Assembly: GCF_004362195.1 (NCBI RefSeq)
Contig: NZ_SNWG01000001.1
Span: 1,488,001 to 1,552,000, forward strand
Direction of reading: 5' to 3'
Source: Microbacterium sp. BK668
Lineage (GTDB): Bacteria > Actinomycetota > Actinomycetes > Actinomycetales > Microbacteriaceae
Length of the DNA stretch: 64,000 nucleotides
Part shown: in pieces, positions 5,163 to 14,296 of the stretch
Numbering within the stretch: position 1 is the first letter of the stretch
How the letters are laid out: each line of letters opens with the position of its first letter
Program-made: the position numbers and the translations under genes
The notes under the pieces: model-generated
Databases searched by the model: none
What the model saw: the letters and a program-made list of their open reading frames with translations, nothing else
Told to the model about the DNA's origin: nothing

Positions 5163-5996
5163 ATGAGCACAGACCCCGCGCCCGACACCATCGTCCTCGT
5201 CCACGGCCTCTGGGTGACACCTCGAAGCTGGGAGCACTGGAAGACGCACTACGAAGCGAAGGGCTTCACCGTCGTCACTCCGCCCTACCCCGGGTTCGAG
5301 ATCGAGGTCGAGGCGCTCCGCGAGAATCCCGATCTCATCGCGAAGCTGACCGTTCCCGAAACCGTCGAGCACCTCGCGGGCGTCATCGAGGCGCTCCCGG
5401 CACGCCCGATCATCATGGGTCACTCTTTCGGCGGGACCCTCACCCAGCTCCTTCTCGCGCGGGGACTCGGGGCCGCAGGGGTGGCGATCAACTCGGCGCC
5501 GACGGAGGGGGTCCGCGTCACACCGCTGTCTCAGGCGCGCTCGCTGTTCCCCGCCCTGAAGAACCCCGCGAACATCCACCGCGCTGTCGGCTTCACGAAG
5601 GACGAGTGGCACTACGCCTTCGCCAACGCGCTCACCCGCGAGGAATCGGATGCCGCATGGGACCGCTACGCGATCCCCGCCCCCGGCAACTGGGTCTGGG
5701 CGTACGGGTTGCTCGCGAACTTCCAGCCCGGTCATCAGGAGACGTGGGTGGACTACTCCGCCGACCGCGCTCCGCTGCTGTTCGTCGGGGGCGGTGTCGA
5801 CCACATCATGCCGCCCGCCGTCAACAAGTCGAACGCGAAGCACTGGGCGAAATCGCCCGCGCTCACCGAGTACCACGAGTTCGAGGGCAGGGGTCATTGG
5901 ACCTGCGGCGAGCCCGGGTGGGAGGCGGTCGCCGACTATGCCCTGGAGTGGGCGCTGGCGCACGCTCGTCGCACGACGGCGCCCACCGACGCCTAG
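5163..5996 (+). CDS. alpha/beta hydrolase
   Basis: 277 residues. The oxyanion-hole motif LVHGLW is at 12-17, the nucleophile elbow GHSFGG puts the serine at 88, a GGGVDHIMPP segment near 215 supplies the acid, and RGHWTC near 250 supplies the histidine. The fold is certain; the substrate is not. It resembles small cytoplasmic esterase or lactonase-like hydrolases, with no signal peptide. The gene follows the chloroperoxidase-like hydrolase by 34 bp, with GAAAGGAAACC as a ribosome binding region, so the two are probably co-transcribed. Confidence 0.85.
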   Translation: MSTDPAPDTIVLVHGLWVTPRSWEHWKTHYEAKGFTVVTPPYPGFEIEVEALRENPDLIAKLTVPETVEHLAGVIEALPARPIIMGHSFGGTLTQLLLARGLGAAGVAINSAPTEGVRVTPLSQARSLFPALKNPANIHRAVGFTKDEWHYAFANALTREESDAAWDRYAIPAPGNWVWAYGLLANFQPGHQETWVDYSADRAPLLFVGGGVDHIMPPAVNKSNAKHWAKSPALTEYHEFEGRGHWTCGEPGWEAVADYALEWALAHARRTTAPTDA

Positions 5997-6873: not shown

Positions 6874-6908
6874 GACCGGAGCGGATGATCCGGGAGGCGC
6901 GAAGCGCA

Positions 6909-7780
6909 TGGACATGCGGGGCAGGCGGGCATGGCCGCGTCGAGGCATCCTGCCCGCGCTGGCGGCGGGGGCGGCAGCCTACGCCGTCCTCTACCGGCTC
7001 GGACAGGTCTCAGGTTCGACGGTGTCCGAGCGTGCGCGCCGCCTTCCCGGCGACGAGCTGATCGATGGGCCGTCGTTCGTCACCAATCACGCAGCCCACC
7101 TCCCGGCCCCTCCCGAGCGCGTGTGGCCGTGGCTCACGCAGGTGGGATGGCACCGGGGAGGCTGGTACACGCCGCGATGGGTGGACAGGATGCTGTTCCC
7201 GGGCAATCTGCCGAGCGCCGACCGGCTCGAGCCCGCCTTCCTCCGCGAGCTGAGGAAGGGCGACGTCATCCCCGACGGCCCACCGGGCACGGCCCACTTC
7301 GTCGTCGAGCGCGCCGATGCTCCTCGGGTGCTGGTACTGCATTCGCGGAGTCATCTTCCTCCGGGTTGGGACACGCGCTTCGGGGCGGCGCTGGACTGGG
7401 TGTGGACGTTCTGCCTCGAGCCGGATGGATCCGGAACGCGGATGCTGATCCGCAACCGCGGGATCGTGCAGCCCGCCTGGCTCGATCGCGCGTATCGAGC
7501 CCTCATCACGCCGGCCGACCATGTCATGACGCGGGGGATGTTCCGCGGGCTGTCCGAGCGTGTCCGCGCCGATCGCGCGACATCCCCCGTGACGCGTGAG
7601 ACGCGCGGGTGCGCGCGAGAGCCCCGGAAGCGGTCCGGTCAGGGAGTGGTGCCGCGATCGAGCGCGCGCATGGCCGAGCGATCGCGGGGTTCGGCGTCCG
7701 GAATGCCGATCGCGCAGCAGTACAGCGGCACTTCATGCTCGACATCCATGCCGGAAAGCGCCGCCAGCTCATCGTCGTAG
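6909..7780 (+). CDS. SRPBCC-like (polyketide cyclase/START fold) protein with antisense-derived tail
   Basis: 290 residues. Residues 12-27 are a short hydrophobic N-terminal segment that may anchor the protein. The core (about 50-225) resembles the SRPBCC ligand-binding fold, with APPERVWPWLTQVGW followed by a Trp-rich strand region. GGGAGG at 6892-6897 supports the ATG at 6909; ATG 6915 is also possible. Oddly, the frame does not stop where the domain ends (about 7580). It runs on through about 65 low-complexity Ser/Arg-rich residues and overlaps the convergent SagB gene by 142 bp. This tail looks like non-functional read-through of the opposite strand after loss of an earlier stop. No ligand is predicted. 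Confidence 0.75.
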
Positions 7781-8439
7781 AAACCGCCGAGATCGACGCA
7801 GCCGAGGTTCAGCGCCGCCGCCGCCAGATTCAGCGACTGCATGACGTGCCCGGCCTCGAGAAGGGCGTACCGATATCCCCTGTCGCCGTACTTCGGCAGG
7901 CTCCGGTCGGGAACGAAGCTGATCACGCCGAGCACGGCGGCTTCGGGCACCCAGGGCTGGCCCATGAAGAGGTAGCTCACGAAGGCGGGCGGGAGGTCGA
8001 CGGCGCGCACGAGCTCGAGGCCGTGCCGCGCGGGAACGTAGTGGTATACCCCCGACGCGAGCTGGTCGACCGAGCGGACGAGTACCGTCAGTTCGAGCGG
8101 GTAGAGGCCCCCTCCGGACGGCGCGGGGCGATCCAGCAGAGGCGCGTCGTCCTGCGCCCGGACCCCGTAGGCCGCGCCCAGCAGCGTGCTGAGCGCGTCC
8201 GTGGACAGAGGGTCGATGCGGAAGCGTCGACAGGACACCCGCGCCGCGAGCGCCGCCCCCAGCGACAGCTCGAGCGGGCGAGGAGGCGGCAATGCGACCC
8301 AGGGGAGGGAGCCGTCCTCGCGTCCGGGGACGAAGGGCGGGGACTCCCCGCCGCCGGCCGCGTTGAACAGCCATCGTGCCGTGCTGCGGTGATAGGTCCA
8401 GGCGGAGGGGGCGTCGCGGGCGAAGAGGAAGTCGAGCAT
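7639..8439 (-). CDS. SagB-type azoline dehydrogenase (nitroreductase fold)
   Basis: 266 residues of the FMN-dependent nitroreductase superfamily, SagB/ThcOx type. Readable hallmarks are the N-terminal YHRST segment, SCRRF near residue 69 (flavin phosphate binding), PSGGGLYPLELTVLV near 107-121, and GYRYALLEAGHVMQSLNLAA near 188-207. In LAP pathways this enzyme oxidises thiazolines or oxazolines on the precursor to aromatic thiazoles or oxazoles. It begins 2 nt after the YcaO gene stops, so it is the last gene of a tight three-gene operon. Its 3' end overlaps the convergent SRPBCC frame. Placement next to a YcaO gene and a Cys-rich peptide gene makes the azole-forming role much more likely than a general nitroreductase role. 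Confidence 0.88.
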   Translation of the reverse strand: MLDFLFARDAPSAWTYHRSTARWLFNAAGGGESPPFVPGREDGSLPWVALPPPRPLELSLGAALAARVSCRRFRIDPLSTDALSTLLGAAYGVRAQDDAPLLDRPAPSGGGLYPLELTVLVRSVDQLASGVYHYVPARHGLELVRAVDLPPAFVSYLFMGQPWVPEAAVLGVISFVPDRSLPKYGDRGYRYALLEAGHVMQSLNLAAAALNLGCVDLGGFYDDELAALSGMDVEHEVPLYCCAIGIPDAEPRDRSAMRALDRGTTP

Positions 8440-8441
8440 GG

Positions 8442-10712
8442 TCAGGCGAGAGGATGCGGGTCCGGGTTGAGGTCACCGGCCTCGGCGACCCGCTCACGCA
8501 GCCCCCAGCGGTGTGGAGCGGCGAACAGGCGGGGATGGCCTGTCCGGGTGCGGTCCGCGCCGAAATCGATCGGCTGGAATCCGGGGAGGATGCCGCGCAC
8601 GACGCGCACACCGAGCGCGGCCACATCGGCGGGCGTGACATCGATCACCAGCACGTCTCCCGAGGCGGCCGCGACGGATGCCACCAGGTCGGCCAGCCCC
8701 GCCCCGCGCGGCGGGAGGTCTTCCCAGGGCGCGGGGTCCGCGGTGCGCAGATGCGCGAGCCCGCGCGCGGCCGTCGCCGGGTCGGAGTACAGGAGGTCGT
8801 GGTCTTCGAGATCGGAGACGAGCGCGGGGTCGGCGACGAGCTGCGCCCGCCGGCTGCGGGTCGCCGGATCCTGCAATCGTGCCCGCAGGGCCGGCCGAAC
8901 CTGTCCGACCTCCAGCACGGCCGAGCGGGCGGCCGAGAGGGGATCCTGCGCGCTGCCGAGGCCCACGACCGCCGCCGGCTCGGAGTCGTCGCACCACCCG
9001 ACGGCCATCGCGACGTACGCCGCCCCGTCGGTGGGCAGGAGATGAACCTCGATGTCGACGCCGCGACGGCGGTAGAGCTCGGCGATGGCGGAGGCGTCCG
9101 CGTCGGGGATGGTCGCGGCATCGTACGGTCGTGTCGCCAGACGGTGCGCCCACGCGATGCAGAAGGCATCCCGCTCGATCACCTCCAGGAGCGCGCGCTC
9201 GGCGGCGAAGGGAACCGTGGGCCCGGCGGCGAAGCCGTTCGAGGTGGGCGCGAACAGGAGCTCGTGCCTCGGCCACCGGCTGCCGGTCAGCGTCGCCGCC
9301 TGGAACGGCACCCATACCTCCGCACCGGTCACGAGCGAGCGCGCCGGCACCCAGTCCAGAACGGTGTCCGGCCCGTAGGGTGCGTATCCGAGGCGCTCCG
9401 CGTCGGCCCGGCGATGCAGGACGAGGTCTTCCGGGTCCAGAGTCGGCTGGGCGACCTCGGCCCGCCGGGCCCGGACGACCCGGTCCGGCGACCAGGTCAG
9501 CGAAGCGTAGCGCTCGAGCGCCTCCCCGATGGCACCGTTGCGTGCGGCATCCACTGTGAGGCCCTTGCCCGAGCACGTGATGAACGCGTCTTCGCCCTGA
9601 CCGAAGAGCACGTTGGCGAGCTGTGCGCGCACGATGAAGGGCTGGCGCGGCTCTTCGACGGGTTTGGGAACGACGTCGAGGTAGCGGATGAGCCCGCAGA
9701 GGTCGCTGACCGTGCGCGCTTCGATCGCGGTGAAATCCGTTTCGCCAGCGGACTCGTCGGTGTCATCCGTCGGCGTGGGTGCTTTTTTTCGGCAGGCCGG
9801 GCAGTCCGGGCGCGGGATGACGGGGTGCATCGCCGTCGTCCCGTTCAGCTGGTCCAGAACCATCACCGAGCCCGGCAGCTTCGGCGACATGGCGGAGGTC
9901 GTGAGAGCGAGGGTCTCCCGGAGGACGATCGCCCATGCGGCCTCCCTGAGACCGGGGAGCAGTGGTCGGCCCAGGCTCGCGTGTGCACGGTCGAGCGCCT
10001 CCTCGCGCGCCATCGCGACCTCGAAGTCGTCGGCGCACGCCAGCGCCCGCATCCGCCAGCACATGTAGCAGGGCCCCTCGCCCGGGAGGACGAGAGGGCC
10101 GACGTATCCGAACGACCCCTCCAGCGAGACGAAGAGGGCCGGCGTCCCGGCGTCCAGGCAGGCTCGGTTGAGACGGGCTCGCAGGGCGGCCCAGCCGGGG
10201 TCCACGAGGCAGATCACCAGGTCGCGGTCGACGACCGCCGCTGTCAGGTCGTCCGCGAGAGCGTCTTGCGGCGACATACGCTGAACGCGGATCCTCGCCT
10301 GGGCTTGGAGCTCCCGCAGACCGGCGGTCTCGCCCTCGTCGCCGATCACCAGCAGATCGACCTCGTCGAGCCGACGACCGAGAGCCTCGCGCGTGTCGGC
10401 GTGCGTCGTGAGCAGATTCAGCCAGCCCGGCTCCTCAGCCGTGCCGCTCTCCGTGATCATCCCGGAGTCGATGAGCCGGTCGAGCAGGCGCGAGATCTCC
10501 CTCGAGGGCAGATCCGAGAGCGACCTCAGGAGGGAATGCCGGTCGGGAGCGACGGTGAGCGCGGGAAGCATCCGCTCCCGCACCACCGTCGCGACGCCCC
10601 CGTCGAGACGCATCATGCCCGCTGGACTGGCGAGGACCAGCTCGTCCCCTTGATCGATGACCTCCAGCCCGGCCGCGGGCGTCAAACGCCGCGACGAAGC
10701 GCCCGTTGCCAC
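8442..10712 (-). CDS. fused leader-binding E1-like / YcaO cyclodehydratase (TOMM C-D fusion)
   Basis: 756 residues, GTG start. Residues 1-350 form the precursor-binding half: a winged-helix-like N-terminus, a Rossmann-like E1/ThiF region, and a structural zinc site of two CxxC pairs (C215/C218 in GPCYMCWR and C304/C307 in DCPACRKK). Residues 355-756 are the YcaO domain, with nucleotide-binding motifs SGKG (381-384), EALER (397-401) and EVIERD (510-515). The C-terminus is PDPHP plus LA, an exact PxPxP, the mark of azoline-forming YcaO proteins. The enzyme would use ATP to cyclise Cys, Ser or Thr of the precursor into azolines. It starts 6 nt after the Cys-rich peptide gene and ends 2 nt before sagB; without a strong ribosome binding site, it is probably translationally coupled. 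Confidence 0.92.
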   Translation of the reverse strand: MATGASSRRLTPAAGLEVIDQGDELVLASPAGMMRLDGGVATVVRERMLPALTVAPDRHSLLRSLSDLPSREISRLLDRLIDSGMITESGTAEEPGWLNLLTTHADTREALGRRLDEVDLLVIGDEGETAGLRELQAQARIRVQRMSPQDALADDLTAAVVDRDLVICLVDPGWAALRARLNRACLDAGTPALFVSLEGSFGYVGPLVLPGEGPCYMCWRMRALACADDFEVAMAREEALDRAHASLGRPLLPGLREAAWAIVLRETLALTTSAMSPKLPGSVMVLDQLNGTTAMHPVIPRPDCPACRKKAPTPTDDTDESAGETDFTAIEARTVSDLCGLIRYLDVVPKPVEEPRQPFIVRAQLANVLFGQGEDAFITCSGKGLTVDAARNGAIGEALERYASLTWSPDRVVRARRAEVAQPTLDPEDLVLHRRADAERLGYAPYGPDTVLDWVPARSLVTGAEVWVPFQAATLTGSRWPRHELLFAPTSNGFAAGPTVPFAAERALLEVIERDAFCIAWAHRLATRPYDAATIPDADASAIAELYRRRGVDIEVHLLPTDGAAYVAMAVGWCDDSEPAAVVGLGSAQDPLSAARSAVLEVGQVRPALRARLQDPATRSRRAQLVADPALVSDLEDHDLLYSDPATAARGLAHLRTADPAPWEDLPPRGAGLADLVASVAAASGDVLVIDVTPADVAALGVRVVRGILPGFQPIDFGADRTRTGHPRLFAAPHRWGLRERVAEAGDLNPDPHPLA

Positions 10713-10718
10713 TGCGTG

Positions 10719-11030
10719 TCAGCCGCCGAGTCCGCCGAAGCGCTGCAGTCCGCCGCCCATGATCGGACCCTGATTGCACGGCCCGCACGTGCACTCGTAG
10801 ATGCACGGCACGAAGCAGGTGCGACACACGGTGCACGTCGTGAAGCACAGCCTCGGGCGGAAGCAGTCGTTGATCCCGCAGAACTCGCCGTAGTAGCCCG
10901 CCGCGGCCGACACCTTCCGAAAGGTGGCGAGTTCCTCCTCGGTGAAGTCCGGCGGAGCGGCGCCCCCGATCTGCTTCTCGAGGCTCTCCAGACGCCCCTT
11001 GAGTTCGTCGAATTCTTCCTGACTCGGCAT
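10719..11030 (-). CDS. candidate LAP/TOMM precursor peptide, Cys-rich
   Basis: 103 residues. Residues 1-49 are an acidic, helical leader (ESLEKQI, then DFTEEELATFRKV) without cysteine. Residues 50-88 hold ten cysteines at 51, 56, 62, 66, 69, 72, 76, 80, 82 and 85 plus five threonines, and the tail 88-103 is Gly-rich. A Cys-free leader followed by a dense Cys/Thr block, directly upstream of a YcaO cyclodehydratase, is the layout of linear azole peptide precursors; it recalls heterocycloanthracin-like peptides but I cannot name a family. ATG 11030 was chosen over 11063 because GGGAGG (minus strand of 11037-11042) sits 6 nt before it. The leader/core boundary near residue 48-50 is inferred. A zinc-binding structural protein is the alternative. 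Confidence 0.8.
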   Translation of the reverse strand: MPSQEEFDELKGRLESLEKQIGGAAPPDFTEEELATFRKVSAAAGYYGEFCGINDCFRPRLCFTTCTVCRTCFVPCIYECTCGPCNQGPIMGGGLQRFGGLGG

Positions 11031-11097
11031 GAGCTGCCTCCCGGGATCGAGCGGGACGCTCACGGGCTACGTCCGTGATGCAGGACCCGCAACGCTC

Positions 11098-11220: not shown

Positions 11221-11490
11221 TCACCAGATGGTGCCGCCGCCGACCGAGATGCCGCCCCACGTCAGCGCGATGAAGATCGCCGCGAACACCACCGGCGCGA
11301 TCCCCTTCCCGTCGCGGGCGATGCCCTTGAACAGGGCGATGACGGTCAGGACCGCCGCCACGATGGACAGCCCCCCGCCGAGGATCAGCCCGATGAACAG
11401 CGGGATGGGCATGAGCACGAGGCCGGCCAGGGCGAACCAGAACGCGGCCCACGCTGTCGGATTCGAGCGGCGCGGAACGGAGGAGGACAT
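11221..11490 (-). CDS. small membrane protein (DUF4190-like)
   Basis: 89 residues with two to three hydrophobic segments (about 14-34, 37-53 and 62-82) separated by a short ARDGKG loop. This resembles small actinobacterial DUF4190-type proteins, whose role is unknown. The ATG at 11490 was chosen because the sequence SSSVPRRSNP leads straight into the first membrane segment. It lies upstream of the LAP operon in the same direction, but 190 bp and a promoter candidate separate them, so a link (for example immunity) is only a possibility. A relaxed -10 (GATACT) sits 6 nt before the start. Confidence 0.65.
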   Translation of the reverse strand: MSSSVPRRSNPTAWAAFWFALAGLVLMPIPLFIGLILGGGLSIVAAVLTVIALFKGIARDGKGIAPVVFAAIFIALTWGGISVGGGTIW

Positions 11491-11535
11491 GCATCCAGTA
11501 TCTCGTGCCCGCGGCCTCACACCCTCAGCCAGGTC

Positions 11536-11541
11536 TAGCAT
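11536..11541 (+). promoter_or_regulatory. -10 element TAGCAT, leaderless start
   Basis: TAGCAT is followed by 6 nt and then the ATG at 11548, so the transcript probably starts at the start codon. No clear -35. Confidence 0.55.
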
Positions 11542-12576: not shown

Positions 12577-13866
12577 TCAGGCGCCGGCCTCGGCATCCTC
12601 CCGCTCCTCGTCGACGGTCGTCCCGAGATCGGCCGACGACCCCGCGGCGCGGCTGAGGAGCACGAAGGGCACGGCGGCCGCCGTGATGATGCCGCTCCAG
12701 AAGAGCGAGACGGCGTAGCCGCTGACGTCGGCCACCCGGCCGAGCACGGGCTGGACCACGACGCCGCCCGCGGAGCCCATGAGCGAGTCGAACGAGAGCA
12801 CCGTCGCGCGCTGCTTCGACGGGATCATCGCGTTGAGGTAGGCACGGTGCACCGGGTCGTCGATCGCCGACGCGATGCCCCACAGGGCGACGAGGACGAT
12901 CGCGATCCAGAAGTTCTCGACGAACCCGAAAATCACGAGCACGAGTGCGCCCGTGACCGTGGCGAGGAGGATGGCCGACGTCCGGCGCCGGAACAGCCTG
13001 CGGACCCAGGGGGCGAGGAGGCCGCCGACGATCGATGCGCCGGAGAGCAGGGCCGCTGCAAGGCCTGCGATGGTGTACGCCTGCTCGTCGCCCCAGAGCT
13101 GCAGCAGGTGCGGCTGAAGGGCGTAGAAGACGTAGATGCCGACGCCGGCGGTGAAGGGGCTGGCGAGCATGAGCCAGCGGACGGCGGGCTTGCCCAGGCC
13201 GTAGCGGATGGATGCCCGGAACACCGTGCGGGTGGCGGCGATCGGGCCCTCGCTCCGGTCCGGCGTGAAGCCGATGTCGCGCATCAGCACAGCGGCCACG
13301 ACGAACATCGCCAGCAGCAGGGCGACCCGGACGAGGAAGGGGGCCCCGAGGTTGCTCAGCTGCGCCACGACGCCGCCGAGGACCGACCCCGCGAGCATCG
13401 CGCTGCCGCTGAAGATCTGCGAGCGACCGAACACCGTCTCGAGGCTGCCCTTGTAGCCGACCGCATGCAGCGCGTCGACGAGCCACGCGTCGATGGCCCC
13501 GGAGAAGAACGTGAACCCGAGGCCCAGGAGCACCGAGACGATCGCCCAGGCCCAGAAGGGGGACTGCCAGAGCCACAGCATCCAGTACATCGCCGTCGAC
13601 ACCGCCAGCGTGATCGTGCCGATGAGATAGGACGCGCGCCGCCCCACCGTGTCGGCGACGACCCCCGTCGGGATCTCGAACACCAGCATCCCGACCGTGA
13701 AGAGCGCGTTCGCCGCGAACGCCTCGAAGTTCGACAGCCCGGCGTCGAGGAGGAAGAGGGTGTTGACGCCCCAGATGAACGATGCGGCCAGCGTGTTCCC
13801 GAGCACGAGCACGTAATACGTGCCCTGGATCCGGCGTGCCGTGGGAAGCGGTGCCGCTGCGGTCAT
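12577..13866 (-). CDS. MFS transporter
   Basis: 429 residues with about twelve membrane segments. The family signature between TM2 and TM3 reads PTGVVADTVGRRAS (about 65-78), a variant of GxxxDxxGRR, and TM1 contains the FIWGVNTLFLLDAG stretch. Such proteins are drug-efflux-like or of unknown substrate. The ATG at 13866 was chosen over an in-frame ATG 17 codons upstream because only the shorter form has a normal cytoplasmic N-terminus, and GGAGG precedes it closely. A TAGCCT hexamer about 35 nt upstream may be the -10. The next gene upstream, a NUDIX hydrolase, ends 43 bp before this start in the same direction, so co-transcription is possible. Confidence 0.85.
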   Translation of the reverse strand: MTAAAPLPTARRIQGTYYVLVLGNTLAASFIWGVNTLFLLDAGLSNFEAFAANALFTVGMLVFEIPTGVVADTVGRRASYLIGTITLAVSTAMYWMLWLWQSPFWAWAIVSVLLGLGFTFFSGAIDAWLVDALHAVGYKGSLETVFGRSQIFSGSAMLAGSVLGGVVAQLSNLGAPFLVRVALLLAMFVVAAVLMRDIGFTPDRSEGPIAATRTVFRASIRYGLGKPAVRWLMLASPFTAGVGIYVFYALQPHLLQLWGDEQAYTIAGLAAALLSGASIVGGLLAPWVRRLFRRRTSAILLATVTGALVLVIFGFVENFWIAIVLVALWGIASAIDDPVHRAYLNAMIPSKQRATVLSFDSLMGSAGGVVVQPVLGRVADVSGYAVSLFWSGIITAAAVPFVLLSRAAGSSADLGTTVDEEREDAEAGA

Positions 13867-13909
13867 GACCCTCCGATCAGAAGAACGACACGTGAAGGCT
13901 AGACCCGGT

Positions 13910-14296
13910 TCACACACGTGAGGCGGTCAGGAGGCGAACCGCGGGCAGATCCGCGTCGGCCCACGCCAGATCGCCGAGCGCTCCTCGCGGGATCCAGCGC
14001 AGCTCGTCGTGGTCGGTGCTCGAGACCGGGCGCTCGGCCTGCAGCCGCGCCCGCAGGCAGATGAGCCGGATGGGTCCGGTCTCGTCCGTGGTCAGGTGAC
14101 CGAGGATCTGGATGCCGATGCCGAGCTCTTCGCGGATCTCGCGCTCGAGGGCCTCGACGGGGCGCTCGCCGGGCTCGACCTTGCCGCCCGGGAACTCCCA
14201 CCGGCCGGCCGCAGCCTTGTGCGCAGCGCGCCGGCACGCGAGGAACCGGCCGTCCTCCTCGATGACGGCGGCGACGACGTCGATCGGCTCGGGCAT
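13910..14296 (-). CDS. NUDIX hydrolase (MutT/8-oxo-dGTPase-like)
   Basis: 128 residues, the normal length for MutT-like enzymes. The Nudix box runs from GGKVEPGE (about 37-44) to REIREELGI (about 52-60), with all Gly and Glu positions of GX5EX7REUXEEXGU present. The preceding RRAAHKAAAGRWEFPGG strongly resembles MutT and related (deoxy)nucleoside triphosphate pyrophosphatases that clean oxidised nucleotides. The start is ATG 14296 with a relaxed -10 (CACGAT) 6 nt upstream, which suggests a leaderless transcript. Confidence 0.88.
   Translation of the reverse strand: MPEPIDVVAAVIEEDGRFLACRRAAHKAAAGRWEFPGGKVEPGERPVEALEREIREELGIGIQILGHLTTDETGPIRLICLRARLQAERPVSSTDHDELRWIPRGALGDLAWADADLPAVRLLTASRV

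What the first reader, a model, noticed from the sequence alone, without database searches (positions are those of the whole stretch)
7639..11030. Compact azole-peptide (LAP/TOMM) operon with an apparently unfamiliar precursor
A Cys-rich 103-aa peptide, a fused E1-like/YcaO cyclodehydratase and a SagB-type dehydrogenase lie on one strand with gaps of 6 and 2 nt. Domain and motif reading (two CxxC zinc pairs, YcaO ATP motifs, terminal PxPxP, flavin motifs) supports heterocycle formation and oxidation. I cannot match the precursor to a named group, so the product may be undescribed.
Basis: partly seen in the sequence, partly recalled or inferred. Interest (0 to 1): 0.85.

Follow-up and report, generated by a model that had tools for sequence, protein, structure and literature searches.

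The report
Unnamed cysteine-rich thiazole-peptide operon
Three adjacent bacterial genes very probably make a small peptide whose cysteines are turned into thiazole rings; the enzymes are of a well-known kind, but the peptide belongs to a sizeable family for which no name was found in the libraries searched.

Summary
A 103-aa precursor, a fused leader-binding/E1-like/YcaO cyclodehydratase and a SagB-type dehydrogenase lie on the minus strand with gaps of 6 and 2 nt. The cyclodehydratase model (pLDDT 92) superposes on LynD over nearly its whole length, including the N-terminal leader-binding part. The 7 genome loci found with the precursor profile, and one further Georgenia genome, carry the same three genes in the same order; I found no fourth gene shared between genera. 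The window precursor matches no Pfam or NCBIfam family, yet the family profile finds 472 proteins: helical leader, two core anchors (CGINDC, ECxCGPC), a variable Cys-rich middle and an RFGGLGG-like tail. No paper in the open-licence library holds CGINDC or ECTCGPC. A close cyclodehydratase is missing from 148 other same-genus genomes, and the window's copy nests among Micropruina sequences, so horizontal acquisition is likely. Best reading: an ordinary LAP/TOMM pathway with an undescribed precursor family. Ring formation, ring number, export, leader removal and activity are inferred or unknown.

The parts
10719..11030 (-). precursor peptide gene, 103 aa, 10 Cys
   Evidence: ORF, RBS and homologues
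11037..11042 (-). GGGAGG ribosome-binding site of the precursor
   Evidence: L006 and L007 also have GGGAGG
10881..11030 (-). leader, residues 1-50 (boundary chosen by me, cleavage site not known), two predicted helices (4-22, 31-44)
   Evidence: (pLDDT about 69-78 over residues 1-40), conservation
10776..10880 (-). Cys-rich core, residues 51-85: anchor CGINDC, variable middle, anchor ECTCGPC
10722..10775 (-). Cys-free tail, residues 86-103, ending RFGGLGG (F98 in 104 of 104 aligned rows)
8442..10712 (-). fused cyclodehydratase (CD), 756 aa
   Evidence: TIGR03604, TIGR03882, PF02624, PF00899
10449..10691 (-). leader-binding (RRE-like) winged-helix part of CD, about residues 8-88
   Evidence: LynD, TruD, MccB and PaaA align from residue 7-9
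9768..10448 (-). E1/ThiF-like part of CD with zinc pairs C215/C218 and C304/C307, about residues 89-315
8445..9755 (-). YcaO part of CD, about residues 320-756
7639..8439 (-). SagB-type FMN-dependent dehydrogenase, 266 aa
   Evidence: TIGR03605; a putative nitroreductase, BmdC, CyaGox and McbC are relatives in the PDB; KYG.RGYR motif in 5 of the 6 SagB ORFs that held (not in L008)

Best explanation
This is a complete minimal linear azol(in)e-containing peptide (LAP/TOMM) pathway. The N-terminal winged-helix part of the CD protein grips the helical leader of the precursor. The YcaO part uses ATP to cyclodehydrate core cysteines to thiazolines (minus 18 Da each), and the SagB-type flavoenzyme oxidises them to thiazoles (minus 20 Da each in all). 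Up to ten rings could come from Cys; the window core also has five Thr, but Ser/Thr are few in the family (median 2), so the product should be mainly polythiazole. The two anchors and the Cys-free tail are constant and the middle varies. Gene order, family membership, predicted enzyme fold and conservation are shown; leader binding, ring formation, leader removal, export and biological role are inferred. I found no protease, transporter or immunity gene shared between the operons, so those steps probably use genes elsewhere, or the product acts inside the cell.
Against: The residue before Cys is rarely Gly (5 cases) and often Arg, Pro, Glu or Asp; from recall, characterised azoline enzymes dislike acidic residues there, so not every Cys may be cyclised. 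The ends of the core are very conserved for an antibiotic RiPP. No export, protease or immunity gene was found to be shared. One locus with a 49% identical CD (Nonomuraea, L024) has no recognisable precursor of this family or SagB within 8 kb. There is no chemical evidence.
Confidence: 0.88

Rival explanations
1. Only the cysteines of the variable middle become thiazoles. The invariant ones preceded by acid (NDC, EC) stay as thiols, and the product is a metal-binding or redox peptide with a conserved cellular role, not a diversified antibiotic.
For: C56, E79, C80, C82, P84, C85 and F98 are invariant in 104 rows; no shared exporter or immunity gene was found; acidic residues precede C56 (mostly D) and C80 (E).
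Against: No metal-binding family matched the window peptide; AlphaFold gives no confident fold for the core, though metals and rings are not modelled; the 104 rows come from the best-scoring hits, so conservation is overstated.
Confidence: 0.15
2. A decayed or non-functional transferred operon in this strain.
For: Probably acquired, by its distribution.
Against: All three frames are open, active-site residues are intact, and dN is below dS in both precursor regions in the five pairs with the window.
Confidence: 0.05
3. The YcaO makes thioamides or amidines rather than azolines.
For: YcaO proteins are known to do this in other settings (titles and abstract starts in the listing).
Against: TIGR03604 and the fused E1-like partner, LynD-like fold, adjacent SagB oxidase. 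No TfuA-like family among the hits, but I did not search for one separately.
Confidence: 0.03

Closest known systems
LynD/TruD cyanobactin heterocyclases
   Same: fold with leader-binding part, E1-like part and YcaO
   Different: about 20-24% identical; no PatA/PatG-like protease family among the 11 window proteins scanned (names recalled); no precursor family hit
Heterocycloanthracin (TIGR03601)
   Same: fused CD and B protein, Cys-repeat cores, few genes common to all clusters (Cox et al. 2015, PMC4603692, section 15 read)
   Different: that CD lacks about 100 N-terminal residues and depends on an F protein; here the N-terminus aligns with LynD. TIGR03601 hits 1 of 104 members, at E 0.045
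NHLP/Nif11 TOMM precursors
   Same: long conserved leader, with cyclodehydratase and dehydrogenase genes (PMC2887384, passages)
   Different: no member matches TIGR03793 or TIGR03798 at E 0.1; NF038399 (NHLP clan) hits 2 of 104, best E 0.047
Paracoccus denitrificans HAMBI_2443 plasmid cluster (L025)
   Same: a precursor of this family (E 3.4e-12, 1.6e-12), E1-like protein, YcaO and SagB
   Different: C and D are separate genes and a TIGR03975 radical SAM C-methyltransferase gene follows the precursor

Membership tests
LAP/TOMM class | YcaO (D) with E1-like (C) partner | tested here: met
   TIGR03604 250 bits over 219.25, TIGR03882 67.8 over 36.9
LAP/TOMM class | leader-binding domain | tested here: met
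   fold match from residue 7-9 to LynD, MccB and PaaA; binding itself not tested
LAP/TOMM class | adjacent short precursor with leader and Cys/Ser/Thr-rich core | tested here: met
LAP/TOMM class | FMN dehydrogenase (optional) | tested here: met
   TIGR03605 above cut-off
LAP/TOMM class | azoline/azole rings in the product | not testable with these tools
   needs mass spectrometry
Heterocycloanthracin | precursor of TIGR03601 | tested here: not met
   window peptide no hit; 1 of 104 members at E 0.045
Heterocycloanthracin | CD truncated at the N-terminus | tested here: not met
   CD aligns with LynD from residue 7-9
Heterocycloanthracin | stand-alone F protein | not tested
   no search made for one
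NHLP/Nif11 precursors | TIGR03793 or TIGR03798 leader | tested here: not met
Cyanobactin | PatA/PatG-like proteases in the cluster | tested here: inconclusive
   none among 11 window proteins scanned and no fourth gene shared between genera, but no search with those families was made
Goadsporin/thiopeptide | lanthipeptide-like dehydratases | tested here: inconclusive
   no fourth gene shared between genera; no dedicated profile search made

The most novel reading that the evidence does not exclude
The peptide is a conserved-role polythiazole in which the invariant ECxCGPC and CGINDC cysteines remain as thiols for metal or redox work while the variable middle carries the rings. This would be a LAP whose function is physiological rather than antagonistic, spread across Actinomycetota and, with a radical SAM methylase added, into Pseudomonadota.
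Probability: 0.15. Interest if true: 0.75.

Novelty: new member of a known kind. Interest (0 to 1): 0.5.

Why it matters
It adds a precursor family of about 472 proteins to the azole-peptide class, with a three-gene pathway small enough to rebuild in E. coli; the members that were listed are called hypothetical protein or carry no name. The unusual residues before Cys would make it a good test of how such enzymes choose which Cys to cyclise.

Tried and rejected
Chance ORF: rejected, because the frame recurs before CD in 7 of 7 loci, with the same start in 6 of 7. Known precursor families: none for the window peptide. For the other 103 rows of A4, NCBIfam gave 23 families at E up to 0.1, each in 1 or 2 members (best E 0.0018). 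Pfam gave 40 families, 25 shown; the commonest is a coiled-coil-like viral repeat in 39 of 104 members (best E 0.00049). I set these aside as leader-helix look-alikes by my reading.

Empty insertion site: I fetched regions of four same-genus genomes, three round the gene like window 11224-11541 and one round the MFS gene. The other window neighbours do not lie beside them there, apart from one weak hit (25% identity, E 4.7e-6) of the 5163-5993 hydrolase in L028. My query for the metallo-beta-lactamase-like neighbour was in a wrong frame, so that gene was not tested. No clean empty site was found. The sigma-70 and terminator scan was uninformative (0 promoters; 1 terminator-like site, on the other strand, against 0.9 expected). 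The GC fraction of the operon (0.712) equals that of the window (0.711), so composition gives no sign of transfer.

Plasmids and phages: no hit with one family precursor, P0159. The CD finds in the plasmids only Nonomuraea (an 11.85-Mb record) and Paracoccus. In 394 class genomes (CD, E 1e-40) and 396 phylum genomes (precursor profile) only the own genome matched. The order draw of 396 gave, besides the own genome, two Georgenia-type genomes with the operon and two at 32% identity without a family precursor. These genome searches score only a few first-look candidates per genome (2 to 12), so misses are possible. Of the seven distant same-genus YcaO relatives (27-35% identical), five had fetched loci, with about 1.5 kb of flank: no family precursor there.

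The host genus is probably Microbacterium (recalled from size, GC and species number); no call names it. That azoline enzymes disfavour acidic residues before Cys is also recalled, and one search for a source was only listed, not read.

Rows left out: P0008, P0016, P0021 and P0036 (duplicated, truncated or frame-shifted) from A2 and the counts; P0015 also from A2 and A4; further similar rows from A4. One search listed 120 of 472 hits; the rest were not seen.

Full report
Observation. The precursor starts at an ATG six bases after GGGAGG. Most homologues begin at the same residue; in the genome loci 6 of 7 do, and Actinoplanes L008 does not.

Precursor family. A single-sequence search gave 37 proteins, the window's own among them, and a profile of 32 of them gave 472, of which 120 were listed. 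In 122 members examined, G-x-N-[DEA]-C (x = I, V or F) occurs in 116 and x-C-x-C-G-P-C in 121. Over the members that hold both anchors, core Cys have median 10 (6-14) and Ser+Thr median 2 (0-7); the window core has ten Cys and five Thr. Cys is most often preceded by Arg, then Pro and Glu, and by Gly only 5 times. My regular expression for the tail matched only 10 of 122; I take it to have been badly written, because the alignment shows F98 in all 104 rows and G102 in at least 90%. V40, C56, E79, C80, C82, P84 and C85 are also invariant there. These rows are the best-scoring hits, so true conservation is lower. AlphaFold predicts two leader helices (4-22, 31-44) and no confident fold for residues 47-96 (mean pLDDT of the whole 55.9), as expected for a precursor.

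Context elsewhere. The one genome scan found 7 loci: Micropruina (3), Propionicimonas (2), Actinoplanes and Georgenia. All 7 hold precursor, CD and SagB in the same order and on the same strand. Of 57 listed precursors with a longest contig of 3 kb or more, 12 share that length exactly with a CD protein, one being the L041 genome (from the lists), which suggests linkage; the other 45 say nothing either way, since only the longest contig of each cluster is given.

Comparing ORFs of the 7 loci, the window and the Paracoccus locus, no fourth family recurs across genera, except ABC-type ATPases at scattered places and one L003-L007 pair that lies antisense to SagB; the other shared neighbours are confined to Micropruina. 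My ORF picker merged or missed some genes (for example SagB of L003, L007 and L009 was not picked, though one search finds it), so a small shared gene could be missed.

A relative with an extra enzyme lies on a Paracoccus denitrificans plasmid typed as conjugative: precursor (E 3.4e-12), a TIGR03975 radical SAM C-methyltransferase (780 bits), separate C and D proteins, and SagB. In Nonomuraea a 49%-identical CD appears to begin without the leader-binding part, and neither a family precursor nor SagB was found within about 8 kb.

Distribution. The precursor is in 0 of 97 other relatives and 0 of 395 others drawn from the phylum. A CD of more than 35% identity is in 0 of 148 other same-genus genomes; seven have distant homologues of 27-35%. 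Only a few candidates per genome were scored in these searches. In a 44-row maximum-likelihood tree the window CD sits inside a 13-row set (support 100/100) that holds six named Micropruina rows; the 18-row set above it (100/100) holds all seven. Its nearest rows are two unnamed metagenome proteins (3-row set, 100/99). Together these suggest horizontal acquisition from a Micropruina-like donor; donor and direction are inferred, and GC content does not show it. Contamination is unlikely, since the window lies about 1.5 Mb into a contig.

Literature. Cox et al. 2015 (PMC4603692: abstract, sections 5, 15, 19, 26 and a term search) reports more than 20 TOMM families; none in the sections that I read fits, and Micropruina, Georgenia, Catenulispora, Actinoplanes and Kribbella do not occur in its main text. 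I did not read its other family sections, figures or supplements. Haft et al. 2010 (PMC2887384) and PMC9426513 were seen as passages; all other papers only as listings. Searches for the two motifs, for Micropruina with RiPP, and for Georgenia with YcaO returned no paper; Microbacterium with YcaO, azole and precursor peptide returned one general review. This library lacks most subscription papers, so absence is not proof.

Verdict. The finding is real and correctly read as a LAP/TOMM operon. The pathway type is known; the precursor family is, as far as I could check, undescribed. I score it as a new member of a known kind.

Noticed in passing
6908-7780 (+): An ORF that looks SRPBCC-like to me (name recalled; no Pfam hit) runs on into the antisense of sagB for about 50-60 codons. 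Six of the seven other places matched have shorter open frames, and it was found in 0 of the 46 other same-genus genomes searched; it may mark one edge of an acquired block.
   Followed up: partly
L025:3077-8541: Paracoccus plasmid relative with a TIGR03975 radical SAM C-methyltransferase gene between the precursor and the cyclodehydratase genes.
   Followed up: partly
L024:7620-9809: Nonomuraea fused cyclodehydratase, 49% identical, that appears to start without the leader-binding part and has no recognised precursor of this family nearby. Kribbella relatives are of similar identity; their context was not seen.
   Followed up: partly
P0008 (metagenomic protein): A precursor whose first core anchor is duplicated in tandem (FCGINDCFRPRLCSTV twice).
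   Followed up: no
12577-13917 (-): MFS transporter on the same strand, upstream of the operon, with 79-81% identical DNA in three same-genus genomes in which the precursor was not found, so it is probably not part of the pathway.
   Followed up: partly
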